Assembly: GCF_025751435.1 (NCBI RefSeq)
Contig: NZ_JAOWKY010000002.1
Span: 372,001-436,000 of the forward strand
Source of the DNA: Albidovulum marisflavi
Lineage (GTDB): Bacteria > Pseudomonadota > Alphaproteobacteria > Rhodobacterales > Rhodobacteraceae
Reading direction: 5' to 3'
DNA: 64,000 nt
Below, piece after piece: positions 2,940 to 33,660 of this stretch (the stretch's first letter is position 1; each line of letters opens with the position of its first letter). The position numbers and the translations under genes are program-made. The notes beneath the pieces are model-generated. The model ran no database searches, had not been told where the DNA came from, and saw only the letters and a program-made list of their open reading frames with translations.

Positions 2940-2965
2940 GGAACTCCGGCCCCGCCTGATCCGTT
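2940..2965 (+). promoter_or_regulatory. Candidate EcfG (general stress sigma) promoter for the FMN reductase gene
   Basis: GGAAC at 2940-2944, 17 bases, CGTT at 2962-2965. This matches the alphaproteobacterial GSR consensus GGAAC-N16/17-CGTT and ends 35 bases before the gene start at 3001. Confidence 0.75.
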
Positions 2966-3000
2966 CAGAAAGGGAACAGACACAATCCAAGGTTAAGGGC

Positions 3001-3576
3001 ATGGAAGAACGAATGACGCGTATCCTGGGCATATCCGGCAGCCTCAGGGAACTGTCCTTCAACGCCGGGCTACTTCGCGCCGCGGTCGCGCTGGCGCCCG
3101 CGGGCGTGGTGCTGGATGCGCGGTCGATCAAGGGCGTCCCGCTTTACAACGCCGACGACGAGGAACGCGACGGCGTGCCAGCGACCGTCGCGCAGTTGAA
3201 AGAGGCCTTGAAGGCCGCGGACGGGCTCTTGCTCGTGACGCCGGAGTACAACAACGGCGTGCCAGGCGTCTTCAAGAATGCCATCGACTGGATGAGCCGG
3301 CCGCCGGGCGGCTTGGACATCTTCAGAGGCAAGCCCGTCGCGATGATCGGCGCCTCGTCGGGCGGTTTCGGAACGATCCTTTCGCAGGCGCACTGGTTGC
3401 CGGTTCTGCGGACCCTGCGGATGCGCCCGTGGTTCGAGGGTCGCCTGATGGTTTCGCGCGCCGAAAAGCTGTGCGATGCGGACAGCAACCTGACCGATGA
3501 GGCAACGCGCGAGAAGCTCGCTGACTTCCTGGAAGGGTTCGTCGAGTTCGTTCGGCACGAGACGCCCGAATCCTGA
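3001..3576 (+). CDS. NADPH-dependent FMN reductase family protein (flavodoxin-like quinone/chromate reductase type)
   Basis: 191 aa, flavodoxin-like fold. GISGSLRELSFNAGLLRA near the N terminus is the FMN phosphate-binding loop, and TPEYNNGVPGVFKNAIDWMSRP in mid-protein is the hallmark of the YieF/ChrR/Azr NAD(P)H:FMN or quinone reductases. Such soluble enzymes pass two electrons to quinones or metals and limit redox cycling. The start could be 3001 or the ATG at 3013; GGAAG five bases before 3013 makes the second attractive. A candidate EcfG promoter at 2940 suggests general-stress control. The last codons and the stop lie in the first unit of a 16-bp tandem repeat. Confidence 0.85.
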   Translation: MEERMTRILGISGSLRELSFNAGLLRAAVALAPAGVVLDARSIKGVPLYNADDEERDGVPATVAQLKEALKAADGLLLVTPEYNNGVPGVFKNAIDWMSRPPGGLDIFRGKPVAMIGASSGGFGTILSQAHWLPVLRTLRMRPWFEGRLMVSRAEKLCDADSNLTDEATREKLADFLEGFVEFVRHETPES

Positions 3577-3644
3577 TCTGCCCGAATCCTGATCTGCCCG
3601 AATCCTGATCTGCCCGAATCCTGATCTACCCGAATCCTGATCTG
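3565..3644. repeat. 16-bp tandem repeat, five units, overlapping a stop codon
   Basis: The unit CCCGAATCCTGATCTG is present five times in exact register (3565, 3581, 3597, 3613, 3629); only unit 4 differs, in its last base. Unit 1 encodes the C-terminal Pro-Glu-Ser and the TGA of the FMN reductase gene; the rest fills the space to the convergent gene ending at 3657. The units lack the dyad and spacer structure of CRISPR. Confidence 0.95.
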
Positions 3645-3656
3645 GTTACGCTTGGC

Positions 3657-3929
3657 TCAAAGCGTGTCATCCGCTTCCGTCTTGTCTGAGATCTGACGGT
3701 GCAGGATCCGCTTGATCTCGGTGACAAGATGTTCCCGGTCCGGATCGGGATCTTCGTTCTGCTCGTTCGTCAGACGGGTGAGCACCTGTTTTAGCCAAGC
3801 CTTGCGCCGTTCGGCCGAATAGCCTTCGTCGGCCAGCACATCCAGAAGCTCGTTGCGAGAGATCCGGTCTCCTTCCTCGGGCGCGCGCAGCGCCGGGGGG
3901 GAATTTGGGGGCGATTTGAGTTTGGACAT
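3657..3929 (-). CDS. Hypothetical protein, 90 aa
   Basis: Not recognised. The start at 3929 is chosen over one 11 codons upstream because AAGGAGA sits just before it. The protein has a Pro/Ser-rich basic N terminus (MSKLKSPPNSPP), then a charged, probably helical body with ISRNELLDVLADEGYSAERR, rich in Asp/Glu/Arg. No signal peptide, membrane segment or cysteine is seen. It lies 121 bases downstream of the epimerase-fusion gene on the same strand and may share its transcript. No EcfG-type promoter of its own was found. Confidence 0.6.
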   Translation of the reverse strand: MSKLKSPPNSPPALRAPEEGDRISRNELLDVLADEGYSAERRKAWLKQVLTRLTNEQNEDPDPDREHLVTEIKRILHRQISDKTEADDTL

Positions 3930-4050
3930 TGCGTTCTCCTTTCCGCGACATCTTTTCGGCACGAAACACGATCCAGGCGCCTTGCAGGCCAGGCGCGCCG
4001 GGGTAGCGACCGATGGGCCCGCAAAGGGGAACCTGGCCCCCTTTGACCCT

Positions 4051-6602: not shown

Positions 6603-6628
6603 GGAACAAGGCCCGCGGCTTGGACGTT
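6603..6628 (+). promoter_or_regulatory. Candidate EcfG promoter for the 89-aa gene at 6657
   Basis: GGAAC at 6603-6607, 17 bases, CGTT at 6625-6628. It ends 28 bases before the ATG at 6657. Confidence 0.75.
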
Positions 6629-6656: not shown

Positions 6657-6926
6657 ATGACCATCAGCGAAGTTGATGCCGAAAGACTTGAAGCCCGACT
6701 TGACGCACATCGCGAAGTGCTTGCCCTGCTTGTCGCCTATGCCGGCGACGGATCGAAGGAACTTACGGAGCGGCTCAGCCGACGCGATGCGACGCCCGCG
6801 CATCATGCCGAGGATCCCGGCGCGGTGCCCGATCGGGCCTTCGCGATCGAGGCTGCGTTCGAGCAGGAACTGCACATGATCGCAAAACAGATCGCGCGGA
6901 TCCGCGAAGCGTCGGGCAAAGGGTAA
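6657..6926 (+). CDS. Hypothetical helical protein, 89 aa
   Basis: Family not recognised. The sequence is mostly predicted helix with an acidic/basic heptad-like pattern (EVDAERLEARLDAHREVLALL at the start, EAAFEQELHMIAKQIARIRE near the end), suggesting a small cytoplasmic coiled-coil protein. There are no cysteines, signal peptide or membrane segment. A GGGGG ribosome site precedes the ATG. A good EcfG promoter lies just upstream, so it is probably a stress-induced protein. It converges with the ferritin-like gene, leaving 17 bases between the stops. Confidence 0.7.
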   Translation: MTISEVDAERLEARLDAHREVLALLVAYAGDGSKELTERLSRRDATPAHHAEDPGAVPDRAFAIEAAFEQELHMIAKQIARIREASGKG

Positions 6927-6943: not shown

Positions 6944-7441
6944 TCAGGCCCTGCGGTTAAGACGCTCCTCTGACGCCTTGGTAAACATCTCGGCCTCCAT
7001 CTGCTCTTCGTCCAGCGTCTGTTCAAGCAGGTCAACGCAGTCTTCGCGGGCAAGTTCCTTGGCCCAGGCAAGCAGCGTGGAATAGCGCGCGATCTCGTAG
7101 GATTTGGCGGTCTTCATCACAGCGACCAGCGCCGCGTCGCGCAGGTCGTCCTCCGCCTCGTCGGGAACGACCCGCTGCATTTCGCCGACGATTTCGTCCA
7201 TCGCCGCGCAGGTGCCCTGCGAGGGCGTTTCACCAATCATTTCGTAGATGCGTTGGAGCCGTTCGATCTGCCCCTTCACTTCCTGCAACTGCGTTCGAAG
7301 CCCCTGCTCCAGAGGGCCGGCGGACGCCCGTTCGGCCAACTGCGGCAAGGCTTCGGCAAGCCTGTGCTCGGCATGATAGATGGAGTTCAGCCAATGCAGG
7401 AACAGGCCCTCCATTGTCGCTTTCTCAGCCGCAGCAGCCAT
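6944..7441 (-). CDS. Ferritin-like protein of the YciF/DUF892 family
   Basis: 165 aa, the usual family length. MEGLFLHWLNSIYHAEHRLAEALPQL at the start and the later helices (KTAKSYEIARYSTLLAWAKELA; LLEQTLDEEQMEAEMFTKASE) match the four-helix bundle of DUF892, whose E/H residues form a di-iron-type site. The family is typical of stress regulons; its biochemical role is not settled. AAGGAAAA lies upstream of the ATG. A minus-strand EcfG promoter at 7526-7551 fits general stress control. Confidence 0.85.
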   Translation of the reverse strand: MAAAAEKATMEGLFLHWLNSIYHAEHRLAEALPQLAERASAGPLEQGLRTQLQEVKGQIERLQRIYEMIGETPSQGTCAAMDEIVGEMQRVVPDEAEDDLRDAALVAVMKTAKSYEIARYSTLLAWAKELAREDCVDLLEQTLDEEQMEAEMFTKASEERLNRRA

Positions 7442-7525: not shown

Positions 7526-7551
7526 AACGCAAAGGCAAAGCCTTGAGTTCC
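7526..7551 (-). promoter_or_regulatory. Candidate EcfG promoter for the ferritin-like gene
   Basis: Minus-strand GGAAC at 7551-7547, 17 bases, CGTT at 7529-7526; the gene starts 85 bases downstream at 7441. Confidence 0.75.
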
Positions 7552-7608: not shown

Positions 7609-7633
7609 GGAACCAGCCGTGACCTGCGCGGTT
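7609..7633 (+). promoter_or_regulatory. Candidate EcfG promoter for the first BON gene
   Basis: GGAAC at 7609-7613, then GTT at 7631-7633 after 17 bases (N16-GGTT). It ends 52 bases before the ATG at 7686. Confidence 0.6.
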
Positions 7634-8405: not shown

Positions 8406-8431
8406 GGAACTTCGCGCGCTGTCCAGTCGTT
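8406..8431 (+). promoter_or_regulatory. Candidate EcfG promoter for the second BON gene
   Basis: GGAAC at 8406-8410, 17 bases, CGTT at 8428-8431; the preferred gene start at 8475 is 43 bases on. Confidence 0.75.
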
Positions 8432-9713: not shown

Positions 9714-9739
9714 GGAACCCTCTTTGGCACTCGCGCGTT
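9714..9739 (+). promoter_or_regulatory. Candidate EcfG promoter for the DUF1328 gene
   Basis: GGAAC at 9714-9718, 17 bases, CGTT at 9736-9739; the ATG at 9790 is 50 bases downstream. Confidence 0.75.
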
Positions 9740-9789: not shown

Positions 9790-9963
9790 ATGCTTGGATG
9801 GGCTATCGCATTTCTCGTTATCGCATTGATCGCCGCGGCACTCGGCTTCGGGGGTATCGCTGGCGCCTCGGCCGGCATCGCGAAGATCCTGTTCGTGATC
9901 TTCCTGGTGCTTTTCATAGCCGCGATGATTGTCCGCGCCCTTCGTGGCCGGCCACCGATGTAA
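9790..9963 (+). CDS. DUF1328 small membrane protein
   Basis: 57 aa, exactly the family size. [22 protein letters not shown]...[23 protein letters not shown] forms two membrane helices with a glycine-rich hinge, as in E. coli YtjA-type proteins. AAGGAG eight bases before the ATG supports this start over one 22 codons earlier. The function of the family is unknown; it is widespread and often stress-linked. An EcfG promoter lies immediately upstream, and the next gene, 98 bases on, may be cotranscribed. Confidence 0.9.
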
Positions 9964-11345: not shown

Positions 11346-11371
11346 GGAACCCCGACCGGGGTGAGCGGGTT
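11346..11371 (+). promoter_or_regulatory. Candidate EcfG promoter for the PRC-barrel gene
   Basis: GGAAC at 11346-11350, then N17-GGTT with GTT at 11369-11371; the ATG at 11424 is 52 bases on. The -10 lacks the preferred C. Confidence 0.55.
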
Positions 11372-12338: not shown

Positions 12339-13898
12339 TCAACCCTTGCCCGGTTCTTCCGAAGCCTCGAGCGCGATCGAAAAGTCGACGTTCACGCAGT
12401 GGCCCTGGCCGGCTTCGTGCGTGATGGTTCCGCCGATCTGGCCAACGAAGGCCCGGACAAGCTGCAAGCCGAGGTTTTCCGTGTTGGTGTCGGGGTTCAC
12501 TCCGGGGCCGTCGTCACGGATCCTAAGGCGAAGCCGGCCTTGCCCCATGCGCGAAAGGCTGACCTCCAGATGGCTGCCGCGGCCGTCGCCAAGCGCATGT
12601 TTGAAGGCGTTCGACACGATTTCGTTCGTCAGCATCCCCAACTGCATCGCCCGGTCTCCCGACAGGTCCACGTCGGCAATGTCGACATGCACATCGACAT
12701 CTTGCGAATAGGACTTTGCGACGTTCCGGACCAGGCGCGTCAGGTACGGTCGGGCGGCGATCGAACTCTGCGAGCCGGTTGAGTACATGTCCTCATGCAC
12801 CGCGACCATCGCCGAGATGCGACCAAGCAGGTCGGCCTCGGCCTCGGGCGGCAAACGCTCAAGCCGGATCAGCGACATGACCGTCTGAAGGTTGTTCTTC
12901 ACCCGGTGGACGATTTCGGCCATCAGCGCGTCCGCCCTCTCGTTCGCCTGAACCAGGGCGCGCTCTCTTCTTTCATCGCGCGCCCGAAGGCCGAACAGGC
13001 CCACAAGCGCCGCGCTCAGGCCGATGATGAGCGGCGCGGCAAAGATCAGCGCGATCTCCAGGTCGCGACCGAACTCGCGATAGACGGTTCCCCGGCTCAC
13101 CCCGACGACCGCTATCACCGGCCATTCTTCCATCTTGCGGTAGCCAAGGATCAGATCTCCCTGCGCGTCCGCGCCGTCTGGGTCCCGATCGGCATCGGCT
13201 CCCTGCACCAGACGCAGGCGAATGGCGGTGTCGAAATCATCCGCGCCTTCGGCGACGGGCCACCGGGCAATGATTGACCCATCGAGTCGGGTCAGCGCCA
13301 GACCGGATGGCGGCCCAAGATCAAGGCTTTCGGCAATGTCGGCCAAGGTGCTGACCGGCACCGCGATCGTCGTCGCGCCGGCGAACCGCCCGCCGTCGTC
13401 GATGCGGCGTGCCAGAACAAAGACCTCTTCGCCCGACACGCGCTCGGTGATCGAAGAAGATATGGAAAGCGCGCTTCCGCCCTGTACGCCTTGAAAATAG
13501 CTGCGGTCGCTGACGTCGATCTGGCCGGCATCACGGAAGCTGGAACGGACAAGACGGCCGAAGGCATCGTAGAGAGCATACTGGAAGCCATCAGGAAGCC
13601 CGCCCACCTCTTCGCTCAGAGTGACGTCGGGCACCGGGCCCTGACTGCGGGAATCGACAGCGGTTTCGATCCTTTGCAGCGCCTGGACGCCCGCGTGGAA
13701 CATCCAGGAAAACTGCGAGGCCGCCGCCGCCGCCGTCCTTTCAACCCGGGCCTCGGTTGCGCTGCGCGAGGATTGCAGATGCAGATAGCCGACAAGGCCT
13801 ACCAGAACGATGATCATGGACAGCAGCAAGCCGACGCCAATCCGAATGACGCGATTCGTGCGATGCAAGATCGCTTCTGCCCCGACACTGTCCAGCAT
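12339..13898 (-). CDS. Sensor histidine kinase, HisKA_2 type, with periplasmic sensor domain
   Basis: 519 aa from the ATG at 13898; a TTG 11 codons upstream is possible, and neither has a strong ribosome site. Membrane helices at about 17-40 and 281-303 enclose a periplasmic dCache-like domain with DRSYFQGV. The cytoplasmic part has the HisKA_2 phosphoacceptor box AEIVHRVKNNLQTVMSLIRLE (His331), then an ATPase domain with NEIVSNAFKHAL and RIRDDGPGV. Kinases of this type commonly phosphorylate PhyR in alphaproteobacteria, and phyR lies 4.6 kb away, so it is a plausible GSR input. No EcfG promoter was found upstream. Confidence 0.85.
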   Translation of the reverse strand: MLDSVGAEAILHRTNRVIRIGVGLLLSMIIVLVGLVGYLHLQSSRSATEARVERTAAAAASQFSWMFHAGVQALQRIETAVDSRSQGPVPDVTLSEEVGGLPDGFQYALYDAFGRLVRSSFRDAGQIDVSDRSYFQGVQGGSALSISSSITERVSGEEVFVLARRIDDGGRFAGATTIAVPVSTLADIAESLDLGPPSGLALTRLDGSIIARWPVAEGADDFDTAIRLRLVQGADADRDPDGADAQGDLILGYRKMEEWPVIAVVGVSRGTVYREFGRDLEIALIFAAPLIIGLSAALVGLFGLRARDERRERALVQANERADALMAEIVHRVKNNLQTVMSLIRLERLPPEAEADLLGRISAMVAVHEDMYSTGSQSSIAARPYLTRLVRNVAKSYSQDVDVHVDIADVDLSGDRAMQLGMLTNEIVSNAFKHALGDGRGSHLEVSLSRMGQGRLRLRIRDDGPGVNPDTNTENLGLQLVRAFVGQIGGTITHEAGQGHCVNVDFSIALEASEEPGKG

Positions 13899-14145: not shown

Positions 14146-14170
14146 GGAACAACTGGGCGTCTGCCGCGTT
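14146..14170 (+). promoter_or_regulatory. Candidate EcfG promoter for the 14233-14906 operon
   Basis: GGAAC at 14146-14150, 16 bases, CGTT at 14167-14170; the ATG at 14233 is 62 bases on. A full consensus match. Confidence 0.8.
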
Positions 14171-15782: not shown

Positions 15783-15808
15783 AACGCGGTTCTCCACGCT
15801 CTGGTTCC
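15783..15808 (-). promoter_or_regulatory. Candidate EcfG promoter for csbD
   Basis: Minus-strand GGAAC at 15808-15804, 17 bases, CGTT at 15786-15783; the csbD ATG at 15740 is 42 bases downstream. Confidence 0.78.
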
Positions 15809-15881: not shown

Positions 15882-17648
15882 TCAGGCAAGTCTGGTCGGA
15901 TAGCCGGAGACCGGCAGCGCATCTTCCTCGTGCGGGGGCTTGATCGCGAAACGGATCGTTACGCCGTAGCGCGACCCCTCCATTCCGCGCTGCAACTCGC
16001 CGTTCAGCTGGCGTCCGAAGGCCGAGACCAGCTGTTCCCCCAGCCCCCCTTTCCCGCGGGCGTCATCCGCCACGCGCTTGTCCTTGGCCACGTCGTTGAA
16101 GATCTTCAGAATGCCTTCGTCGTCGCGGCCCTTCTTGAAACTGAGGTCGATGCGCCGGGCACCGCCTGATGAAACCGCGGCATGACGCATGGCGTTGTTC
16201 AGCGCCTCTGTCGCGAGAAGCGCCAATGGCACGATCTGGTCCGCCGTCATGCGGATCGGATCAAGATCCGTCCGGACATCATAGGCATGACCCAGCTCAT
16301 CCACGCGCCGCGCCAGATGGTTCGCGATGTCCGCAAGGACCTCGTCCGCGGGGACCTCGCGCAGGCCCGAGGCCCTGAACAGTTCGTCATGGATGCTGGC
16401 GAGACTCAGCACCCGGTCCTGCACCACCCTCAGTTCGTCGCGAAGTTCGACAGAGGACACGCGGCGAAGCTGCATGTTCATGAACGAGGCGATCAGCTGC
16501 AGGTTGTTCTTCACCCGGTGGTGCACCTCTCGCAAAAGCACGTCCCGCTCACGGACCATGTTTTCAAGCTCGGCCTCGTCGTGAATGACGTTGTCCATCA
16601 TGCGATCGAAGGAGGCGGCGATCTCGCGCAGTTCGGTCGGGGCACGCTCAATCGCGACTTTGCCGACGACCCTCGAGCCGCTGGCGAAGTCGCGGATCGC
16701 GTTCCTCAGTGTGCTGATGTTGCGGATCACCAGGCGATCCACGGCAAGCAGCGCGACGATCAGGCTGGCAAACCACATCAGCGCGGGCACCAGCACGGGG
16801 ATCGATGAGATCCATGGATTGCCCGTCGCATCCGCCGATGCCCTAAGCGAGCCAAGTGCGTAGACCTCGTTCGGGATAAGTGGAATGACCGAATAGATGC
16901 GCCTGTTTCCGCCGTTGTCGGTGGCGGCAAAGGACATGGGACTTGCGCTTACCAGCGCCGCAAGAGGCCGGTCGGACGGCAGCACCTCGTCGAGGTTCGT
17001 GCTGTCCGGTGGACCCATCAGAATGTTGCCGTCGCTTGAGAATATCGTGAGCGCGACGGCCCCTTCATCGCCATTGCCGCCGCGGATGGACGTGAAGGGT
17101 ATCGATACGGCGACAAATCCGGCGTAGGCGCCGGTCGCGTCAATAACCGGCGCCGTGAGGGAAAGGACAGGTTCGTCGGACAAGCGCGGCGACCGGTTCA
17201 AGACGATCTGTGGCGTCCTTGTGTCGACAATCCGATCGAACAGAGGGTCTTGGCTGACGTCCATCGGTTCCGAGTGGGAGGAACAGCGGATCACGCCGCT
17301 GCTTGGCACGAAACCCGCGAAGGCGAAATGCGTCTTGGTGTGGATGACGGAACGCATCAGGTCCGAGCATGTGGCGGCGTCATCGGCAAGATGATGTCGG
17401 ACCGCAAGCGCAAGCGTCGCCGCGATCCCGGCGGCCTCCTGTATGATCCGCCGTTCCTCGGCGGCGGCGCGCGTGGTTTCGCCCAGAAGCGCCGCCTCGG
17501 ATCTTGCCTGTGCCTCCTGCACCAGTGCAATGGATCTGACGGCCGAGACCAGCGCGAGCGGCAGCAGAACGACGGCCAGCAGGAATGCGATCTGGAAACC
17601 CAGTCTGTTCGCCCACCGCGGGCCGCTCAGCCCCGCGCGGGCATTCAT
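15882..17648 (-). CDS. Sensor histidine kinase, HisKA_2 type, third gene of the nepR-ecfG operon
   Basis: 588 aa. Membrane helices at about 18-40 and 282-304 bracket a periplasmic sensor region of about 240 residues with few clear motifs. A HAMP-like region at about 305-360 leads to REVHHRVKNNLQLIASFMNMQ, where His377 is the expected phosphoacceptor, then ATPase boxes LATEALNNAMRHA and GKGGLGEQLVSAFGRQL. The ATG overlaps the ecfG stop (ATGA), so it is coupled to the sigma factor. Kinases in this position are the usual PhyR activators (PhyK/LovK-like role). It is the most likely direct signal input to the stress switch. Confidence 0.9.
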   Translation of the reverse strand: MNARAGLSGPRWANRLGFQIAFLLAVVLLPLALVSAVRSIALVQEAQARSEAALLGETTRAAAEERRIIQEAAGIAATLALAVRHHLADDAATCSDLMRSVIHTKTHFAFAGFVPSSGVIRCSSHSEPMDVSQDPLFDRIVDTRTPQIVLNRSPRLSDEPVLSLTAPVIDATGAYAGFVAVSIPFTSIRGGNGDEGAVALTIFSSDGNILMGPPDSTNLDEVLPSDRPLAALVSASPMSFAATDNGGNRRIYSVIPLIPNEVYALGSLRASADATGNPWISSIPVLVPALMWFASLIVALLAVDRLVIRNISTLRNAIRDFASGSRVVGKVAIERAPTELREIAASFDRMMDNVIHDEAELENMVRERDVLLREVHHRVKNNLQLIASFMNMQLRRVSSVELRDELRVVQDRVLSLASIHDELFRASGLREVPADEVLADIANHLARRVDELGHAYDVRTDLDPIRMTADQIVPLALLATEALNNAMRHAAVSSGGARRIDLSFKKGRDDEGILKIFNDVAKDKRVADDARGKGGLGEQLVSAFGRQLNGELQRGMEGSRYGVTIRFAIKPPHEEDALPVSGYPTRLA

Positions 17649-18217
17649 GCCACCTGAACCTTTGATCGTCCCATGACGGCCATCATCGCATCGTCGCTGC
17701 CCGACATCGGGTCTTCGCCCTCCTTGAGGTCAAGCAATTCGCAAAGCCGCGCGCGCGCCCTGTTGGTCCGGCTTTTCACGGTGCCGATCGCGACCCCGAT
17801 CGTCGAGGCCGCCTCCTCATAGGAAAACCCCAACGCGCCGACCAGGATCAGGACTTCCCGATGTTCGGGCGTCAGCTGATTGAACGCTGCGGCGAAGTCC
17901 GAAAATGCAAGATGCGCGTCATGCGCCGGGCGATGGTAAAGTCGGGCGGTGTGAACCCCGTCCGGATCGGAAACCTCGCGCTTGCGCTTGCGGCGTTCCG
18001 AAAAGAAGGTGTTGCGCAGGATCGTGAACAGCCAGGCCCTCATGTTCGTGCCCGGTTCGAACTTGTCGATATTGGTCCAGGCCTTGACGATCGTGTCCTG
18101 CACGAGGTCGTCGGCCGCCGCCACGTTGCGCGTCAGACTGATCGCGAACGCGCGCATGGCCGACAGATGCTCGGGCAACTCGTCGCGCGGATCGAGATGT
18201 GCGGGATCGTCACTCAT
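17645..18217 (-). CDS. ecfG: EcfG-type general stress sigma factor (ECF15)
   Basis: 190 aa from MSDDPAHLDPRDELPEHL; the ATG overlaps the nepR stop (ATGA). The sigma-2 region has NVAAADDLVQDTIVKAWTNIDKFEPGTNMRAWLFTILRN and sigma-4 has LTPEHREVLILVGALGFSYEEAASTIGVAIGTVKSRTNRARARL. Immediate linkage to nepR and divergence from phyR identify it as the GSR sigma factor rather than another ECF. In the family model it is held by NepR and freed when phosphorylated PhyR binds NepR, then directs RNA polymerase to GGAAC-N16/17-CGTT promoters, of which this window contains many. Confidence 0.95.
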   Translation of the reverse strand: MSDDPAHLDPRDELPEHLSAMRAFAISLTRNVAAADDLVQDTIVKAWTNIDKFEPGTNMRAWLFTILRNTFFSERRKRKREVSDPDGVHTARLYHRPAHDAHLAFSDFAAAFNQLTPEHREVLILVGALGFSYEEAASTIGVAIGTVKSRTNRARARLCELLDLKEGEDPMSGSDDAMMAVMGRSKVQVA

Positions 18218-18378
18218 TTCTGGCCTTCCGCCTTGCGTCGAAGCTCCTCCAGCAGCAGCTTGAACCGTTCGGGAATTTCCTCTTCCAGCGCTTCCTGATA
18301 GACTCGTCTCAGGTTCTGATCGATCAGAGCCTTCACGTTGGGACCGCACTGATTTGGCCTGCCCTCATCATGGGCCAT
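18214..18378 (-). CDS. nepR: NepR anti-sigma factor
   Basis: 54 aa, decoded directly from the minus strand: MAHDEGRPNQCGPNVKALID, then QNLRRVYQEALEEEIPERFK, then LLLEELRRKAEGQK. The core NLRRVYQEALEEEIPERFKLLLEEL is the NepR signature, two amphipathic helices that clamp EcfG or the sigma-like domain of PhyR. It is small but complete, with a normal stop. Its TGA overlaps the ecfG ATG, a coupling that would keep anti-sigma and sigma levels matched. An EcfG consensus promoter lies 46 bases upstream, giving autoregulation. Confidence 0.93.
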   Translation of the reverse strand: MAHDEGRPNQCGPNVKALIDQNLRRVYQEALEEEIPERFKLLLEELRRKAEGQK

Positions 18379-18416: not shown

Positions 18417-18441
18417 GGAACCTAACGCCAAGTTCCGAGTT
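18417..18441 (+). promoter_or_regulatory. Candidate EcfG promoter for phyR
   Basis: GGAAC at 18417-18421, then GTT at 18439-18441 (N16-AGTT); the phyR ATG at 18475 is 33 bases on. It interleaves with the nepR promoter on the other strand. Confidence 0.7.
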
Positions 18442-18448
18442 GGGTTCC
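18424..18448 (-). promoter_or_regulatory. Candidate EcfG promoter for nepR-ecfG-kinase
   Basis: Minus-strand GGAAC at 18448-18444, 16 bases, CGTT at 18427-18424: a full consensus match 45 bases from the nepR ATG. Confidence 0.82.
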
Positions 18449-18474: not shown

Positions 18475-19287
18475 ATGTCCACGAAAGACCAAGTTTCAAA
18501 AACCGAAGGCATCGCGGCAGGCGTTCCGTATCTTCGCCGCTACGCGCGCGCGCTGACCGGCAGCCAGCCGACCGGCGACCGCTACGCCGCTGCGGCGCTT
18601 GAGGCCATTCTGGCCGATGAGCAGATTGACATCGACGACGGCCATACCCCGAAAGTCATGCTGTTTCGCGCCTTTCACCTTGTCTGGTCTAGCGCCGGAT
18701 CGCCCGTGGGTGCGCCCGACACCGCCCTTGCCGCGCGGGCGCAGTACAACATGTCCAAGCTGACGCCGCATTCCCGTGAAGCGCTGCTTCTGCACGCGAT
18801 CGAAGGGTTCGACTTCGAGGAGATCGGACAAATACTCGACCTGACTGGCGACGAGGCGCGCGAAAGCGTCGACATCGCGCGGCGCGAGCTTGACACGGCG
18901 GTCCGGGGCAAGGTCATGATCATCGAGGACGAGGCGATCATCGCTTTGGACATTGCGGCGATCGTCGAAGAAATCGGGCACACGGTGACGGGAATCGCGC
19001 GAACCCATGAAGAAGCGCTGCGCCTTGCCGCGCGCGCGAAACCGAACCTGATCCTTGCGGACATCAAGCTTGCGGACAATTCCTCGGGCATCGATGCGGT
19101 CAACGACATACTGGGCCATTTCGACAGGCTGCCGGTGATCTTCATCACGGCCTTTCCGGAACGGTTGCTCACGGGCGACAGGCCAGAACCCGCCTTCCTG
19201 ATCACCAAGCCCTTTACCGAGGAGCAGGTTCGGTCGGCCGTCAGCCAAGCGATGTTCTTCGCCTCGACCGAGACGCTTGCCGCCTGA
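18475..19287 (+). CDS. phyR: PhyR anti-anti-sigma response regulator
   Basis: 270 aa from the ATG at 18475, with GGGAG upstream. Residues 1 to about 140 are a degenerate EcfG-like sigma domain (VPYLRRYARALTGSQPTGDRY; LTPHSREALLLHAIEGFDFEEIGQIL). Residues 145-262 are a receiver with acidic pocket E151-D152, phosphoacceptor Asp196 (LILADIKLAD) and Lys245 (ITKPFTEE). The IFITAFPERLLTG segment is typical of this receiver subgroup. Phosphorylation opens the protein so that the sigma-like domain captures NepR and releases EcfG. It is transcribed away from nepR-ecfG, with an EcfG promoter of its own, giving positive feedback. Confidence 0.95.
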   Translation: MSTKDQVSKTEGIAAGVPYLRRYARALTGSQPTGDRYAAAALEAILADEQIDIDDGHTPKVMLFRAFHLVWSSAGSPVGAPDTALAARAQYNMSKLTPHSREALLLHAIEGFDFEEIGQILDLTGDEARESVDIARRELDTAVRGKVMIIEDEAIIALDIAAIVEEIGHTVTGIARTHEEALRLAARAKPNLILADIKLADNSSGIDAVNDILGHFDRLPVIFITAFPERLLTGDRPEPAFLITKPFTEEQVRSAVSQAMFFASTETLAA

Positions 19288-19993: not shown

Positions 19994-20019
19994 GGAACCT
20001 CCGGCTGGCGCGATACGTT
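19994..20019 (+). promoter_or_regulatory. Candidate EcfG promoter for the EamA transporter
   Basis: GGAAC at 19994-19998, 17 bases, CGTT at 20016-20019. The assigned ATG at 20029 is only 9 bases after the -10, so the mRNA would be almost leaderless, or translation begins further downstream. Confidence 0.65.
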
Positions 20020-21332: not shown

Positions 21333-21358
21333 AACTTGGCCGACCACCGGAACGTTCC
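21333..21358 (-). promoter_or_regulatory. Candidate EcfG promoter for the tail-anchored protein gene
   Basis: Minus-strand GGAAC at 21358-21354, then N17-AGTT with GTT at 21335-21333; the gene starts 32 bases on at 21301. Confidence 0.5.
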
Positions 21359-21374
21359 CCGCCGGATGCGCGTT
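21349..21374 (+). promoter_or_regulatory. Candidate EcfG promoter for the third BON gene
   Basis: GGAAC at 21349-21353, 17 bases, CGTT at 21371-21374; the ATG at 21420 is 45 bases downstream. Confidence 0.75.
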
Positions 21375-21725: not shown

Positions 21726-21748
21726 CGCACCGGCGGGCGGGCGGTTCA

Positions 21749-21804
<56 letters not shown>

Positions 21805-21826
21805 CACAACGAAGGAAGGAGACACG

Positions 21827-22536: not shown

Positions 22537-22562
22537 GGAACCTTGGCGCCCTTCGCCGCGTT
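22537..22562 (+). promoter_or_regulatory. Candidate EcfG promoter for the fad operon
   Basis: GGAAC at 22537-22541, 17 bases, CGTT at 22559-22562; the fadE-like ATG at 22584 follows after 21 bases, with GGAGG between. Confidence 0.78.
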
Positions 22563-28230: not shown

Positions 28231-30098
28231 CGATGGCGGGCGTGACTTCCAGAACGGATCCTCAGGAAATCGCACGGGACATCGTCGCGCGCGTCGGCCC
28301 GAACGTGCGTCTTGCGCTGCCGCTGGGGCTTGGCAAGGCCGTCACCATCACCAACGCGCTGACACGTCTTGCGGAAGAGGACAGTTCGATCCGGCTCGAC
28401 ATATTCACCGCGCTCACGCTTGAACGACCGCAGCCCGAATCCGACCTGCACGCGCGCTTCCTTGGCCCTGCCATGGACCGGCTGTTCGGCGCCTACCCGG
28501 ATATCCGCTATGCCCAGCTTCTTCGCCGCGATGCCCTTCCTCGCAACATCACCGTCAGCGAGTTCTTCTTCATGGCGGGCCGCTGGCTTGGCAACGTCCG
28601 GGCGCAGGCGGCCCATGTGACGGCCAACTACACCCACGCGCTAGGCGACCTGATCGCCCGCCGGCCCAATGTCGTGGCCCAGCTTCTGGCCGAAGAGCGC
28701 GGACGGCTCAGCCTGTCATGCAACACGGATATCACGGTCGATCTGCTGCAAGCCCGCAGCCGAGGCGAGGCAAGCTTTCTGATGGTTGGCGAGGTCAACC
28801 GTCAGCTGCCCTTCATGGGCGGAACCGGCGAAATCGGCCGGGGCGAGGTGGACATCTTGCTAGACGACCCGGACAACGCCTTCGAACTTTTTTCGGTCGT
28901 CAAGCGACCGCTTTCGCTTGCCGATCACGCGATCGGGTTGCACGTCGGACGCCTTGTCCCGGACGGCGGCACGCTTCAGATCGGCATCGGCCAGATCGGC
29001 GATGCGGTTTCCTCGGCGCTGCTGCTGAGGCACGAAAGGCCGGAGGTCGCAGCAAGCATCTGGCGCGATACCCCGTTTCCGCGCGCCCCGGACTTCAAGG
29101 GGGCCGGTTTCAATGAATCAGGTCCGTTCCGGACCGGACTTTACGTCGTGACGGAAATGCTGGTCGAGGGCATCCTGGCGTTGCTGAAGGCCGGGGTCAT
29201 CGGGCGCGAGGCCCAAGGGGCGTTGGTGCATGCGGGGTTCTTCCTGGACAGCCGCGCCTTCTACCGGACCCTGCGCGAAATGTCTGCGACGGATCGCGCA
29301 CGCATCGCGATGGTGCCGGTTTCCTTCACGAACGACCTTTTCGGGGATGAGCCAGCCAAGCGCGCCGCGCGCCGCGACGCGCGCTTCGTCAATGCGGCGA
29401 TGAAGGTTACGGCCCTGGGCGGGGTGATCTCGGACATCACGCGGCAGGGCCAGACGATCAGCGGTGTCGGCGGGCAGTACAATTTCGTGGCCCAGGCCCA
29501 TGCGCTGGACGGCGCGCGCTCGGTCATCGCGCTTGACGCGACACGGGTGCGGCGCGGCCGTCCGGTTTCGAACATCGTCTGGGACCATCCGCATGAAACC
29601 ATCCCGCGCCATCTGCGGGATATCGTCGTCACGCAATACGGCATCGCCGACCTGCGCGGACGCCCGGACGCCGATGCGATCCTGGCAATGATCGCGATCT
29701 CGGATTCACGCTTCCAGGAGGAGCTACTGGAAATGGCGAAGTCCGCAGGCAAGCTGCCGGCTCGGGCGCAGGTGCCCAAGGCGCGGCGCCAGAACACAAG
29801 CGAAAACCTGTCGGCATGGCTGGCAGGCTACCGGCGAAGCGGTGAGCTTCGGGATTTTCCCTTCGGCACGGATTTCAGCGAAACCGAACAACGCCTTCTT
29901 CCGGCGCTTCAGCGCATCAAGCAGGCGACCGGTTCGCCCCGAAGCCTTGCGATGTTGGCGCTCAGGGGGGCCATGCACGCATCGCCAAGCGCTGGCCCCG
30001 AATGCCTGCGCAGGCTGAAGCTGGACCGGCCCGCCACACCAAGGGAACTCGCCTTGAGATGGCTTGTGCTTGGCGCACTGGCGCAGCGGGATCGCTGA
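28227..30098 (+). CDS. Acetyl-CoA hydrolase/transferase family protein
   Basis: About 623 aa. The start is uncertain: GTG at 28227 overlaps the fadJ stop (chosen), with ATG at 28212 or 28233 as alternatives. Early VRLALPLGLGKAVTITNAL and late GGVISDITRQGQTISGVGGQYNFVAQAHAL, VSNIVWDHPHETIPRHLRDIVVTQYGIADLRG match the acetyl-CoA hydrolase/4-hydroxybutyrate CoA-transferase family; the latter block holds the CoA-transferase active-site region. It releases CoA from acetyl-CoA or transfers it to another acid. As the fourth gene of the fad operon it could dispose of beta-oxidation acetyl-CoA and recycle CoA. Confidence 0.82.
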   Translation: MTMAGVTSRTDPQEIARDIVARVGPNVRLALPLGLGKAVTITNALTRLAEEDSSIRLDIFTALTLERPQPESDLHARFLGPAMDRLFGAYPDIRYAQLLRRDALPRNITVSEFFFMAGRWLGNVRAQAAHVTANYTHALGDLIARRPNVVAQLLAEERGRLSLSCNTDITVDLLQARSRGEASFLMVGEVNRQLPFMGGTGEIGRGEVDILLDDPDNAFELFSVVKRPLSLADHAIGLHVGRLVPDGGTLQIGIGQIGDAVSSALLLRHERPEVAASIWRDTPFPRAPDFKGAGFNESGPFRTGLYVVTEMLVEGILALLKAGVIGREAQGALVHAGFFLDSRAFYRTLREMSATDRARIAMVPVSFTNDLFGDEPAKRAARRDARFVNAAMKVTALGGVISDITRQGQTISGVGGQYNFVAQAHALDGARSVIALDATRVRRGRPVSNIVWDHPHETIPRHLRDIVVTQYGIADLRGRPDADAILAMIAISDSRFQEELLEMAKSAGKLPARAQVPKARRQNTSENLSAWLAGYRRSGELRDFPFGTDFSETEQRLLPALQRIKQATGSPRSLAMLALRGAMHASPSAGPECLRRLKLDRPATPRELALRWLVLGALAQRDR

Positions 30099-30144: not shown

Positions 30145-31521
30145 TCAGCCATGAAGCATGAGCTTTTCGGGGTCGCCCAGAAGCGCGCGCACCGCGTTCA
30201 CGAAACGCGCCGCCTGCGCGCCGTCGGCGACGCGGTGATCAAAGGTCAGGCACACCGGCAGGCAGAGCGCAAGCTCGAAACGGTAGTCGTCAAGGTCACC
30301 CTTCACAAGCTGGCGAAGCTCGGCTCGGGCCGCGCCGAAGATCGCGGTTTGCGGCGGATTGATGATCGGAGAAAGCCCCGTCCCGCCGATGGGGCCAATG
30401 TTGGTCAGCGTGAAGGTCGCCCCCCTCAGGTCTTCCGCGCGGGCCTTGCCTTCGCGCAGGCGCTCTGCAAGTTCGCCAAGGTTGTGCGCCATGTCGATGA
30501 TGCTGGCCTGGCCCGCATTGCGAAGCACAGGCACCAGTAGCCCCCGTTCCGTATCCAGGGCCACGCCGACGTCGAAGCGATTCTTTCGGTGAACCTCGCG
30601 GGCTTCGGCGTCGAACGTGGCATTGAAGTCTGGAAAGTCGGCAAGTGCCACGGCCAGCGCCTTGACCAGAAACGGCGTGAGCGTGAGCGCGCCACCTTTC
30701 TTCTCGATCTCCGGTGCGTGTTTGCGGCGCAGACGTTCAAGCGCGGTGATGTCGATCACGTCGTGATGGGTCACATGCGGGATATCGCGCCAGGCCTGTT
30801 CCATGCGCCGGGCGGTCGTGCGGCGAAGCGAGCGCAATTCGTAGACATCCTCTTCGCCGTCGGCCGCGTCCGCGTCGTCATCCGCTTCGCCATGCGTGGT
30901 CTGCGCGGCCTCCCTGACCGCCTTTTCGGTGACGCGCCCGTCCTTGCCGGTCGCTTCCAACTTTGTCAGATCCACCCCAAGTTCACGCGCAAGCCCTCGC
31001 ACGGCCGGTGTCGCAAGAACCTCGTCGGGTTTGAGCTTTTCGTCCCTGTCGCGACTGCGCTCTGGCTCATCGGAGGCTTCGCCCCCGCCTCCTTCATCCG
31101 TGTCTCCTTCATCCGTGTCTCCTTCATCCCTGTCCCACTCGCCTTCGCCGTCTTCAGGCGCGCGGTCCTCCGGTTCGTCGTCGGATCGCGCCTTCGCCGG
31201 GGCCGTTTCTGTTGGGGCCGTTTCTGTTGGGGCCGGTTCGCGGTCTCCGTTCTGTGACTGGGCCTTGTCTGCATCCCCATCCCCGTCTTCCGAAAACACC
31301 AGCAGGACATCGCCGACATTGACGATGTCGCCCACCGCGACGCGGATCTCCTGGACTGTGCCGCTGACTGGCGCGGGAATGTCGACCGCAGCCTTGTCCG
31401 TCTCGGCCACGATCACGTCATCGCCCTCGGCGACCTTGTCGCCCTTTGCGACATTGATCTCGACGATCTCCGCCTCATGGATGCCTTCGCCGGGATCTTG
31501 CAGTCGGAATTCGTGGGGCAT
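30145..31521 (-). CDS. 2-oxo acid dehydrogenase E2, dihydrolipoamide acyltransferase
   Basis: 458 aa from the second of two adjacent ATGs, seven bases after GGGAG. One lipoyl domain is at residues 1-80 (VAETDKAAVDIPAP, lipoyl-Lys in the DKA motif). A long acidic linker at about 80-160 contains 15-bp repeats. The E1/E3-binding domain is at about 165-200 (ATPAVRGLARELGVDLTKLEATGKDGRV). The catalytic domain ends with LTFDHRVADGAQAARFV, containing the DHRxxDG active-site His. It accepts an acyl group from E1 and passes it to CoA. It is third of an E1alpha-E1beta-E2 operon with no E3 nearby. Confidence 0.9.
   Translation of the reverse strand: MPHEFRLQDPGEGIHEAEIVEINVAKGDKVAEGDDVIVAETDKAAVDIPAPVSGTVQEIRVAVGDIVNVGDVLLVFSEDGDGDADKAQSQNGDREPAPTETAPTETAPAKARSDDEPEDRAPEDGEGEWDRDEGDTDEGDTDEGGGGEASDEPERSRDRDEKLKPDEVLATPAVRGLARELGVDLTKLEATGKDGRVTEKAVREAAQTTHGEADDDADAADGEEDVYELRSLRRTTARRMEQAWRDIPHVTHHDVIDITALERLRRKHAPEIEKKGGALTLTPFLVKALAVALADFPDFNATFDAEAREVHRKNRFDVGVALDTERGLLVPVLRNAGQASIIDMAHNLGELAERLREGKARAEDLRGATFTLTNIGPIGGTGLSPIINPPQTAIFGAARAELRQLVKGDLDDYRFELALCLPVCLTFDHRVADGAQAARFVNAVRALLGDPEKLMLHG
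31090..31134 (-). repeat. 15-bp tandem repeat in the E2 linker (DTDEG units)
   Basis: Three head-to-tail 15-base units, the third with one substitution, reading in frame as repeated Asp-Thr/Arg-Asp-Glu-Gly in the disordered linker of the E2 protein. Confidence 0.85.
31199..31236 (-). repeat. 15-bp tandem repeat in the E2 linker (TETAP units)
   Basis: Two full 15-base units plus part of a third, encoding repeated Thr-Glu-Thr-Ala-Pro between the lipoyl and subunit-binding domains. Confidence 0.85.
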
Positions 31522-31535
31522 CATGTATCTCCCGG

Positions 31536-32516
31536 CTAGTAGTTCATGGTCGCGCGGCAAGCATCGGCGATGCGTTCCGCATCCGGCAGGTAGAGTTGTT
31601 CGCGCGCGAAATAAGGCACGTTCACGTCCGGTCCGGTCACGCGCATGACCGGCGCCTGCAGCTTGAGGAAGGCACCCTCCATCACACGCGCCGCGATCTC
31701 GGCGCCCGGGCCATAGCTTAGCGGCGCCTCGTGCACGACGACGCAGCGCCCGGTCCGTCGCACGGAGGCCGCAATCGCCTCATGGTCGAGCGGAGAAAGC
31801 GTGAGCAGATCGATCACCTCGGCCTCGATCCCCCCGTCGGCCAGCGTCTTCGCGGCCTCCATGGCGCGCGGCAGCATGGCGCCATAGGCCACGAGCGTCA
31901 GATCGGTCCCGTCACGCCGGATCATGGCCTTGCCGATCGTGATCGGTTCGTCCTCCTCATCCGACACCTCTTCGCGAAAGGCGCGGTAGAGGGCCTTGGG
32001 CTCGAAGAACACCACCGGATCGGGATCCCGGATCGCCGCGACCAGCAAGGTTCTTGCGGCGCGCGGCCCGGATGGCACCACCAGCTTGATCCCCGGCATG
32101 TGGGTGTAGAAAACCTCGCGGCTTTCCGAGTGGTGTTCGAGTGCGCGCACGCCCGCGCCATAGGGCATCCTGACGACCACCGGCACCTGACGCCCGCCCT
32201 GCGTTCGCCAGCGCATCCTCGACAGGTGCGACTCGATCTGGTGGAAGCCGAGATAGGAAAAGCCCGAAAACTGCATCTCCGGAACCGGGCGCAGCCCGCG
32301 CATGGCCATCCCGACCGACACGCCCATGATCCCGCTTTCGGCCAGCGGCGTGTCGATCACCCGTTCTTCGCCGAATTCCTCGATCAGGTCCTTGGTCACA
32401 CGGAAGATGCCGCCGTCGACGCCGACATCCTCTCCAAGAATGACGACGCGTTCGTCCCGGCGCATTTCTTCGGCAAGCGCAAGGTTGATCGCTTCGACCA
32501 TGGTCAGTTCAGCCAT
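31536..32516 (-). CDS. 2-oxo acid dehydrogenase E1 beta subunit
   Basis: 326 aa, standard length. MVEAINLALAEEMRRDERVVILGEDVGVDGGIFRVTKDL and VIDTPLAESGIMGVSVGMAMRG are the transketolase-like PYR domain signature with the conserved Glu that activates thiamine diphosphate. VIDLLTLSPLDHEAIAASVRRTGRCVVVHEA is the C-terminal transketolase domain. Paired with E1alpha it decarboxylates a 2-oxo acid and acylates E2. It overlaps E1alpha by 8 bases. Pyruvate versus branched-chain 2-oxo acids cannot be decided from sequence reading alone. Confidence 0.92.
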   Translation of the reverse strand: MAELTMVEAINLALAEEMRRDERVVILGEDVGVDGGIFRVTKDLIEEFGEERVIDTPLAESGIMGVSVGMAMRGLRPVPEMQFSGFSYLGFHQIESHLSRMRWRTQGGRQVPVVVRMPYGAGVRALEHHSESREVFYTHMPGIKLVVPSGPRAARTLLVAAIRDPDPVVFFEPKALYRAFREEVSDEEDEPITIGKAMIRRDGTDLTLVAYGAMLPRAMEAAKTLADGGIEAEVIDLLTLSPLDHEAIAASVRRTGRCVVVHEAPLSYGPGAEIAARVMEGAFLKLQAPVMRVTGPDVNVPYFAREQLYLPDAERIADACRATMNY

Positions 32517-33609
32517 CCTTCCACCCGCCGGGACTGTGCCCGTCCTGCATGCGCGCGCGCTGCCGCGCGAGTTCCGGTGTCAGTTCGGCGAAGACATGAT
32601 CGAACATCGGGCCGACATCCTTCAGCGTCTCGATCCGGGCCTCGGTGGCCTTCCAGGCGGCCTGGATCTCATCGGTGATCTCTTCCTCCATCCGCTCGAT
32701 GCCCTTGTCATCGACAAGACCGCGCGCCATCAGCCACTTCCCGAACCGTTCGATCGGGTCGCGCTGCCGCCATTTTGCCACTTCTTCCTCGTCGCGGTAG
32801 CGGCTGGGATCGTCGGCTGTCGTATGCATCTCAAGACGGTAGGTCACGCACTCGATCAGCGTTGGTCGGCTTTCGTTTCGGGCACGATCGACAGCCTCGC
32901 GGGCGGCGACATGGCAGGCAAAGATGTCATTGCCGTCGACCTGGATGCCGGTCACACCGTAGGCGATCGCCTTTTGCGCCAGTGTTTCCGATCGGGTCTG
33001 GCGCGACCGCGGCACCGAGATCGCGTATTGGTTGTTCTGGCAGACGAAGACGACGGGGCAATCGAAGACAGAGGCAAAGTTCATCGCCTCGTGAAAATCG
33101 CCCTGGCTTGTGGCGCCATCGCCGAAATAGGTCATGGCGATCTCTTCCTCGCCCAGAAGCCGCGCCGCGTGCACGATGCCCACGGCGTGCAGCATCTGCG
33201 TGCCGACCGGCACGGCAAGCGGCAGGGTGCGGCTGTCTTCAGCAAGCGCGCCACCCTCGTTGTAGCCGGCATCGTAAAGCAGGATGTCCTTGGGATCGGT
33301 GCCGCGCCAGAAATGCGCAGCCGTTTCGCGGTACGACGGCACGAACCAGTCCGTTTCATCAAGGGCAGAGATCGTGCCGACCTGGGCCGCTTCCTGGCCA
33401 TTCACGGGTGCGAAGGTGCCGATCCGCCCCGACCGCTGCAACTTGAGCCGCCGTTGATCGAAGCGGCGGGCCTTGACCATCGTGCGGTAGCCGCGGACAA
33501 GCAGATCATCGGGGATTTCGGGCACAAGTTCTTCGTCCGCCTTGCCGTCTTCATCCAGGATCGACAGGCGTTCAACGCGGCTTTCAAATTGAAGCGGTTC
33601 TCTTGGCAA
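32509..33609 (-). CDS. 2-oxo acid dehydrogenase E1 alpha subunit (TTG start)
   Basis: 366 aa from a TTG at 33609, preceded by GGAGAGGATT. A longer frame to 33744 exists, but the EcfG promoter at 33635-33660 lies inside it, and 366 aa fits the pyruvate/2-oxo E1alpha subgroup, so the short start is preferred. FAPVNGQEAAQVGTISAL and MTYFGDGATSQGDFHEAMNFASVFDCPVVFVCQNNQYAIS contain the thiamine-diphosphate motif (GDG...NN). RYRDEEEV is the conserved loop region. It is first in the E1alpha-E1beta-E2 operon, convergent with the fad operon. Confidence 0.88.
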   Translation of the reverse strand: MPREPLQFESRVERLSILDEDGKADEELVPEIPDDLLVRGYRTMVKARRFDQRRLKLQRSGRIGTFAPVNGQEAAQVGTISALDETDWFVPSYRETAAHFWRGTDPKDILLYDAGYNEGGALAEDSRTLPLAVPVGTQMLHAVGIVHAARLLGEEEIAMTYFGDGATSQGDFHEAMNFASVFDCPVVFVCQNNQYAISVPRSRQTRSETLAQKAIAYGVTGIQVDGNDIFACHVAAREAVDRARNESRPTLIECVTYRLEMHTTADDPSRYRDEEEVAKWRQRDPIERFGKWLMARGLVDDKGIERMEEEITDEIQAAWKATEARIETLKDVGPMFDHVFAELTPELARQRARMQDGHSPGGWKDG

Positions 33610-33634
33610 AATCCTCTCCGCAGTGATGTGACAC

Positions 33635-33660
33635 AACGTTTTCAGACGGGGAATGGTTCC
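33635..33660 (-). promoter_or_regulatory. Candidate EcfG promoter for the 2-oxo acid dehydrogenase operon
   Basis: Minus-strand GGAAC at 33660-33656, 17 bases, CGTT at 33638-33635. It lies 25 bases upstream of the TTG start at 33609 and within the longer open frame, so it helps decide the start. Confidence 0.75.

What the first reader, a model, noticed from the sequence alone, without database searches (positions are those of the whole stretch)
2940..33660. A general stress response regulon clustered around its own sigma factor
Seen: 18 candidate EcfG promoters (GGAAC, 16-17 bases, CGTT or NGTT) lie in short intergenic spaces from 2.9 to 33.7 kb; 13 have the full CGTT. Nearly all point at the next gene, usually 20-85 bases upstream. 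They precede FMN reductase, an 89-aa protein, DUF892, three BON genes, DUF1328, PRC-barrel, a KGG-like operon, csbD, nepR, phyR, dps, EamA, a tail-anchored protein, the fad operon and an E1alpha operon. In the intergenic regions I checked from 34 to 64 kb I found none. Known: this is the EcfG consensus. Inference: a large share of the regulon has gathered around nepR-ecfG-phyR, which is unusual since GSR regulons are normally scattered. I did not scan coding DNA exhaustively for background matches.
Basis: partly seen in the sequence, partly recalled or inferred. Interest (0 to 1): 0.85.

Follow-up and report, generated by a model that had tools for sequence, protein, structure and literature searches.

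The report
Stress genes clustered by their switch
In this bacterium many of the genes predicted to answer to the general stress switch sit right beside the switch itself, the same holds in many of its relatives, and a second, related switch elsewhere in the genome has its own neighbourhood of genes with a slightly different start signal.

Summary
GGAAC-N16/17-CGTT occurs 15 times in the window, all at 2940-33660 (0.93 expected); 13 are at promoter positions, plus four NGTT sites. The whole genome has 68 strict sites, the reversed control 91, so these 31 kb are a real hot spot. It is not peculiar to this strain: 80 relatives' phyR loci hold 311 sites against 31 control; Paracoccus is an exception. 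Acquisition next to tRNA-Ser is likely but unproven: the two closest relatives (by one flank protein) lack PhyR and EcfG, yet no integrase or att repeat was found and the PhyR tree is poorly resolved. A second EcfG gene, about 298 kb away, has its own site-rich island with a different motif, GGAACA-N15-[GT]GTT. The split recurs in other EcfG2 loci (p=9e-15), while ecfG2's own promoter is mostly EcfG1-type (12:3 against 22:88). Best reading: EcfG1 drives its island and ecfG2; EcfG2 reads a partly separate code in its own island. No expression data were available.

The parts
2940..2965 (+). EcfG-type promoter, N17-CGTT, before FMN reductase (3013-3576)
6603..6628 (+). EcfG-type promoter, N17-CGTT, before 89-aa ORF (6657-6926)
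   Evidence: ORF has no Pfam match
7526..7551 (-). EcfG-type promoter, N17-CGTT, before DUF892 gene (6944-7414)
7609..7633 (+). candidate promoter, N16-GGTT, before BON gene (7686-8300)
8406..8431 (+). EcfG-type promoter, N17-CGTT, before BON gene (8475-9080)
9714..9739 (+). EcfG-type promoter, N17-CGTT, before DUF1328-like gene (9790-9963)
Evidence: in relatives' phyR loci a strict site precedes 38 of 57 homologues and an NGTT site 56 of 57.
11346..11371 (+). candidate promoter, N17-GGTT, before PRC-barrel gene (11424-12257)
   Evidence: strict in 14 of 16, NGTT in 16 of 16 homologues
12339..13898 (-). HisKA_2 sensor kinase; no EcfG-type site found upstream
14146..14170 (+). EcfG-type promoter, N16-CGTT, before KGG-like (14233-14460) and Host_attach/baeRF (14457-14906) genes
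   Evidence: the KGG-like ORF has no Pfam match
15783..15808 (-). EcfG-type promoter, N17-CGTT, before csbD (15543-15740) and a PNPOx-like gene (15020-15532)
   Evidence: strict in 23 of 28, NGTT in 24 of 28 CsbD homologues
15882..17648 (-). HisKA_2 sensor kinase with weak Cache and HAMP matches; overlaps the end of ecfG
17645..18217 (-). ecfG (EcfG1 sigma factor)
18214..18378 (-). nepR anti-sigma factor
   Evidence: PF18557
18417..18441 (+). candidate promoter, N16-AGTT, before phyR
18424..18448 (-). EcfG-type promoter, N16-CGTT, before nepR-ecfG
18475..19287 (+). phyR anti-anti-sigma response regulator
   Evidence: PF22029, PF22233, PF00072
19929..19954 (-). EcfG-type promoter, N17-CGTT, before dps/ferritin-like gene (19352-19846)
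   Evidence: strict in 18 of 25, NGTT in 24 of 25 homologues
19994..20019 (+). EcfG-type promoter, N17-CGTT, 9 nt before EamA gene (20029-20976)
   Evidence: no homologue in the loci compared
21333..21358 (-). candidate promoter, N17-AGTT, before tail-anchored gene (21008-21301); shares a palindromic -35, GGAACGTTCC, with the next
21349..21374 (+). EcfG-type promoter, N17-CGTT, before BON (21420-21725) and dodecin (21827-22024) genes
22537..22562 (+). EcfG-type promoter, N17-CGTT, before fad operon (22584-30098)
   Evidence: first and last genes by Pfam; the two between not scanned; site also present in G006, absent in Roseivivax marinus
33635..33660 (-). EcfG-type promoter, N17-CGTT, before E1alpha/E1beta/E2-like operon (30145-33609)
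34021..34110 (-). tRNA-Ser(GGA), right edge of the island; in relatives the same side of this tRNA often carries recombinase-like genes

Best explanation
The 31-kb stretch is a general-stress-response island. Stress-sensing HisKA_2 kinases phosphorylate PhyR, PhyR takes NepR away from EcfG, and EcfG starts transcription at about 13-17 promoters packed around its own gene (BON, DUF892, CsbD, DUF1328-like, PRC-barrel, Dps, KGG-like and others). Such islands recur in Rhodobacteraceae, on chromosomes and plasmids; this copy was probably acquired next to tRNA-Ser. EcfG also switches on a second, non-canonical sigma gene, ecfG2 (own genome C3:91119-91640), whose product then reads a partly separate promoter code, GGAACA-N15-[GT]GTT, concentrated in its own island (C3:91-114 kb). 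Shown by sequence: site clusters, regulator identities, motif difference, distribution. Inferred: that these sites are promoters, that each sigma reads its local motif, the order of the cascade, and the transfer.
For: Cluster 1: 15 strict sites against 0.93 expected and 53 in the other 3.79 Mb. Core proteins by Pfam. Relatives: 311 against 31 control in 80 phyR loci, falling off over about 8 kb; 107 against 9 in 11 same-genus loci. Footprinting: NGTT site before 56 of 57 DUF1328-like, 24 of 28 CsbD, 24 of 25 Dps and 16 of 16 PRC homologues. Second island: an EcfG paralogue of 46-47% identity with 5 strict and 13 non-C sites, 0 and 0 control, in 23 kb. Motif split: C to non-C 418:208 in 91 EcfG1 loci and 29:79 in 16 EcfG2 loci, p=9e-15; by locus (68 and 14 loci with at least 3 sites) p=3e-5, and A after GGAAC p=7e-7. 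ecfG2's own promoter is C type in 12 of 15 found (17 loci examined, 2 without a site) against 22 of 110 other sites, p=8e-6. 14 of 14 other EcfG2 genomes have PhyR. Hand-picked named plasmids repeat the split: 19:5 against 6:25, p=1e-5. GGAACA-N15-KGTT occurs 24 times in the own genome against 9 control, 6 of them in 17 kb of the second island.
Against: No transcription data. EcfG1 loci also hold many non-C sites (208 of 626), so the codes overlap and EcfG1 may read both. Three of the four EcfG2 plasmids in the count are Paracoccus, whose phyR loci also use non-C sites (17 of 19); there only the base after GGAAC separates the two. I picked 4 EcfG2-like and 3 phyR plasmid regions of 361 and 15 records; a fifth EcfG2-like region, R. 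etli 8C-3, has one CGTT site and no cluster and was not in that count. The ecfG2 start is uncertain: with the start chosen the site at 91087 would lie inside the gene, and in two relatives (L193, L200) the site overlaps the presumed start. How many of the 295 family genomes without EcfG2 have PhyR was not tested. Fifteen of 69 long phyR loci have no site beyond the regulator spacer. EamA, the E1alpha operon and the 89-aa ORF have no supporting promoter in a homologue; FMN reductase has one homologue, without a site. No integrase, att repeat or GC shift marks the island. In the PhyR tree the genus rows themselves fall in more than one place and the backbone there is open. Fisher counts treat related sites as independent.
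Confidence: 0.62

Rival explanations
1. Both islands are read by EcfG1 alone, or interchangeably by both sigmas; the motif difference reflects tuning of promoter strength, not a separate code.
For: The EcfG paralogues of Sphingopyxis granuli seem to share target genes and the -10 box is flexible there (PMC7083833 and PMC8103513, passages read); EcfG1 loci also contain 208 non-C sites of 626.
Against: The split is seen over 15 EcfG2 loci from 14 genomes, each of a different genus, plus G006, extends to spacing (p=2e-5) and to the base after -35, and ecfG2's own promoter departs from its island. GC is the same in both islands.
Confidence: 0.3
2. Clustering is inherited neighbourhood only: a local regulon that grew by duplication and insertion, with loss in some relatives and no transfer of the island as a unit.
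For: Gene content differs widely between relatives; mainly DUF1328-like, CsbD, Dps, PRC and the regulators recur. No mobility gene found in the island. Part of the PhyR tree is unresolved.
Against: PhyR and EcfG are present together in 13 of 22 genus genomes and absent together in 9; phyR lies at different places relative to the flank gene within the genus; the window's PhyR pairs with Actibacterium, 99/81; 15 plasmid records carry phyR.
Confidence: 0.33
3. The site excess is a chance or composition effect and most sites are not promoters.
For: Genome-wide the strict motif is no commoner than its reversed control (68 against 91).
Against: Local excess in many genomes, position upstream of genes, and footprinting.
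Confidence: 0.02

Closest known systems
PhyR-NepR-EcfG general stress response of Alphaproteobacteria (ECF15)
   Same: Same regulators in the same order with a HisKA_2 kinase, EcfG-type sites before nepR and phyR, GGAAC-N16-17-CGTT motif, and several gene families known as targets elsewhere (csbD and PRC-barrel in the passages).
   Different: Many predicted targets are packed beside the regulators; in the passages read, the listed targets of Sphingomonas melonis and Sphingopyxis granuli carry widely spread locus numbers (PMC6599016, PMC7083833).
Rhizobium etli EcfG1/EcfG2 (canonical and non-canonical)
   Same: A second EcfG without its own NepR/PhyR nearby; plasmid-borne there and in some relatives of the present EcfG2.
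   Different: No motif was found for R. etli EcfG2 (PMC3892343 section 19); here a candidate motif is seen. A related R. etli 8C-3 locus shows no cluster (one site in 24 kb).
Caulobacter SigT/SigU
   Same: The second EcfG is a target of the first (as told in PMC8103513, passage).
   Different: SigU is described there as controlling a small subset of SigT's genes; here each sigma has its own island.
Two GSR loci in Rubellimicrobium thermophilum (PMC12148442, passages)
   Same: A genome with two EcfG loci, promoters predicted with the C/GGTT consensus.
   Different: There both loci carry PhyR; the passages I read do not speak of regulon clustering or paralogue-specific motifs.

Membership tests
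PhyR-NepR-EcfG general stress response | PhyR with sigma-like and receiver domains | tested here: met
PhyR-NepR-EcfG general stress response | NepR encoded upstream of and overlapping ecfG, divergent from phyR | tested here: met
   (PF18557); 4-nt overlap 18214-18217
PhyR-NepR-EcfG general stress response | HWE/HisKA_2 kinase adjacent | tested here: met
PhyR-NepR-EcfG general stress response | EcfG consensus before nepR-ecfG and phyR | tested here: met
   (the phyR site is AGTT)
PhyR-NepR-EcfG general stress response | EcfG-dependent, stress-induced transcription | not testable with these tools
   needs mutants and RNA data
Non-canonical EcfG (EcfG2) | EcfG homologue without nepR/phyR beside it | tested here: met
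   none of 17 loci shows a NepR hit; L188 has a weak PhyR-like hit (37%) and L192 an EcfG1-like gene about 9 kb off
Non-canonical EcfG (EcfG2) | Promoter pattern of its own | tested here: inconclusive
   motif split is statistical; recognition by the sigma untested
tRNA-borne genomic island | Abuts the 3' end of a tRNA gene with broken synteny | tested here: met
tRNA-borne genomic island | Integrase and flanking att repeat | tested here: not met
   no hit to the relatives' recombinases in the window or the 16 kb before it; no second copy of the tRNA end there. So it is not filed as such an island, only as lying at a hot spot

The most novel reading that the evidence does not exclude
Paralogous general-stress sigma factors in Rhodobacteraceae have split their promoter code: EcfG1 reads GGAACC-N15/16-CGTT and EcfG2 reads GGAACA-N15-[GT]GTT. 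Each keeps much of its regulon physically around its own gene as a transferable module, and the two are wired in series because ecfG2 itself carries an EcfG1-type promoter.
Probability: 0.5. Interest if true: 0.78.

Novelty: new variant of a known kind. Interest (0 to 1): 0.62.

Why it matters
[quoted passage not shown] The locally clustered sites here give each paralogue a set of neighbouring candidate promoters, so a code can be read from sequence and tested in one in vitro experiment. It also suggests that a stress response can spread as a module, switch and targets together.

Tried and rejected
Chance: rejected. Compositional island: GC is 0.642 in cluster 1, 0.641 in cluster 2, 0.648 in the rest of the window and 0.639 in a sample of other own-genome stretches. 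Integration by att repeat: no second copy of the tRNA-Ser end in the window or L133; the direct repeats found are short and none involves the tRNA. E1alpha promoter footprint: one homologue in 21 other genus genomes at E<=1e-60, 44% identical, so nothing to compare. Fad operon: the site is conserved in G006, but none lies upstream of the operon with the same annotated gene order near ecfG2 in Roseivivax marinus. A third group of EcfG-like loci (G010, G002, G001; 35-39% identity) has no sites in 20 kb each. The 80 phyR loci are the best 80 of 124 confirmed relatives. G006 is a fragmented assembly (about 570 contigs, contamination 6, two phyR genes), so its islands may be of mixed origin. Literature: seven searches listed no paper that I recognised as reporting clustered EcfG regulons in Rhodobacteraceae; only open-licence papers are held, and I read passages of six papers and one section of one of them, no whole text.
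Full report
OBSERVATION. The strict motif GGAAC-N16/17-CGTT occurs 15 times in the 64-kb window, all between 2940 and 33660; dinucleotide shuffles give a mean of 0.93 and a maximum of 4 in 100. Thirteen sites are outside called genes and precede a same-strand gene; two lie inside genes (7034-, 21054-). The right half has no strict site and two NGTT sites.

GENES. Pfam supports NepR, EcfG, PhyR and two HisKA_2 kinases, with DUF892, three BON proteins, PRC-barrel, CsbD, Dps/ferritin, dodecin, baeRF/Host_attach, PNPOx-like, MgtC, DUF2254, FMN reductase, EamA, an acyl-CoA dehydrogenase and an acetyl-CoA hydrolase C-terminal domain. The KGG-like, 89-aa and 90-aa ORFs have no Pfam match; the tail-anchored ORF was not scanned in its own frame.

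GENOME-WIDE TEST. The window is C3:372001-436000 of a 3.82-Mb assembly in 10 contigs. There are 68 strict sites in all and 91 matches of the reversed control. Outside the cluster there are 53: 34 genic, 19 intergenic, 12 of these with a gene called downstream. So of about 25 promoter-positioned strict sites, 13 lie in this 0.8% of the genome, 5 in a second cluster and 7 elsewhere; by my reading of the downstream proteins these 7 include a Ku-like, a UspA-like and an entericidin-like gene (names recalled, not searched). The inside and outside sites were not judged by quite the same procedure. The Poisson figure for cluster 1 is about 2e-18, with boundaries chosen after the fact.

RELATIVES. PhyR found 80 named loci (best 80 of 124). 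They hold 311 strict sites against 31 control in 1.53 Mb; leaving out the 300 nt before phyR, 221 against 30. Density is 178-300 per Mb in the bins from -8 to -2 kb and 0 to +4 kb, 94 at 4-6 kb, 42-87 further out, and 38 in the bin from -2 to -0.3 kb; control bins run from 0 to 43. Of 69 loci over 15 kb, 44 have at least two such sites, 25 at least four and 15 none. Eleven same-genus loci give 107 against 9. In 17 loci from other alphaproteobacterial families the count is 46 against 6, 21 of them over 1.5 kb from phyR: a weaker clustering. Paracoccus is a clear exception: 11 phyR loci carry 2 strict sites in all and little beyond the nepR site. Genes recurring behind strict sites are NepR, DUF1328-like, PhyR, CsbD, a DUF883-like protein, an unnamed 163-aa protein, an AI-2E-like protein, a PLD-N-like protein, PRC-barrel and Dps (several names recalled from sequence). 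Footprinting supports the window's DUF1328-like, CsbD, Dps and PRC promoters strongly; DUF892 (NGTT in 6 of 7) and the 204-aa BON gene (2 of 3) have homologues with sites in EcfG2 loci; E1alpha, EamA and the 89-aa ORF have none, and FMN reductase has one homologue, without a site.

ORIGIN. Thirteen of 22 genus genomes have a full PhyR match and the same 13 have an EcfG-like sigma at E<=1e-20. The two closest relatives by the right-flank protein (85% and 81%) have neither. The right-flank gene 34174-34893 is found in 13 of 14 relatives examined, and none of the own genes left of tRNA-Ser was found at E<=1e-15 in the 16 stretches (4 to 20 kb each) fetched beside it. A serine-recombinase-like gene lies within 20 kb on that side in 7 of 12 relatives by a shared sequence string, and BLAST links genes in two more (G003, G008) to them; the family name is recalled, not from a Pfam run. 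The window's PhyR pairs with Actibacterium ureilyticum (99/81), not with the 14 genus rows (13 different sequences), but those rows themselves fall in more than one place and the backbone is open. Plasmids of D. shibae, Gemmobacter, Roseobacter and others carry phyR (15 records). This favours acquisition, but no integrase or att repeat was found, so transfer remains inferred.

SECOND ISLAND. A second EcfG (46-47% identical) lies at C3:91119-91640, about 298 kb from ecfG, in a 23-kb stretch with 5 strict and 13 non-C sites and none for either control. Its neighbours include a BON-like protein, SDR, cytochrome oxidase genes, entericidin-like and dodecin-like proteins and others (names recalled from sequence, no Pfam run). 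Genome-wide the non-C motif gives 144 against 129 control (the list of places was cut, but contig C3 is shown). GGAACA-N15-KGTT gives 24 against 9 control, 6 of them in 17 kb here. EcfG2 orthologues at E<=1e-45 occur in 15 of 295 family genomes including this one, and 14 of 14 others have PhyR. In the genus only G006 has one (75%); by the protein starts its island mixes relatives of genes from both islands of this genome, including csbD, DUF892, KGG-like and the fad operon, though that assembly is fragmented.

TWO CODES. Across 91 EcfG1 loci C to non-C at the -10 start is 418:208, and across 16 EcfG2 loci (own genome excluded) 29:79 (p=9e-15); spacing 16 to 17 is 363:263 and 86:22 (p=2e-5). 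Within this genome the same holds: 15:7 against 5:13 (p=0.02), spacing 7:15 against 15:3 (p=0.002). By locus, p=3e-5 for the -10 base and 7e-7 for A after GGAAC (own and G006 islands included). ecfG2's own promoter is C type in 12 of 15 found (two of 17 loci had none), against 22 of 110 other sites (p=8e-6); start codons are uncertain in a few of these. Seven named plasmid regions picked by me repeat the split, 19:5 (three phyR loci) against 6:25 (four EcfG2-like loci); three of the four are Paracoccus, where the -10 base does not discriminate, and an R. etli locus without a cluster was left out of that count. Alignment of 87 EcfG1 and 17 EcfG2 proteins shows consistent differences in several regions; I do not assign them to base contacts.

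MECHANISM. Most likely the PhyR-NepR switch frees EcfG1, which drives its island and ecfG2; EcfG2 then drives its own island. Steps shown: regulator identities, site positions and motif statistics. Steps inferred: promoter activity, sigma specificity, order. Literature read in passages gives precedent for EcfG cascades (PMC7083833, PMC8103513) and reports no motif for R. etli EcfG2 (PMC3892343 section 19).

Noticed in passing
L064, L078, L083, L084, L089, L091, L092, L094, L095, L099, L107 (Paracoccus phyR loci): These loci lack the target cluster; the nepR site is GGTT or TGTT type in 9 of 11, and in most of the nine spacers shown there is a shared stretch around CTTGTGCGCAC of unknown role.
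   Followed up: partly
window 21333-21374: Two divergent EcfG-type promoters share one palindromic -35 element, GGAACGTTCC.
   Followed up: no
window 3564-3643 and 21737-21814: Short tandem repeats: a 16-nt unit at the end of the FMN reductase gene, and a 12-nt-spaced ACGACC repeat before dodecin.
   Followed up: no
L222 (Paracoccus aminovorans plasmid IV): Fourteen EcfG-type sites in 30 kb around an EcfG2-like gene, 11 beginning GGAACA and 8 ending GGTT; Ku, PRC-barrel and superoxide dismutase family genes lie there.
   Followed up: partly
left side of tRNA-Ser(GGA) in L203, L204, L205, L207, L209, L211, L216: A recurrent insertion hot spot with serine-recombinase-like genes in this genus.
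   Followed up: partly
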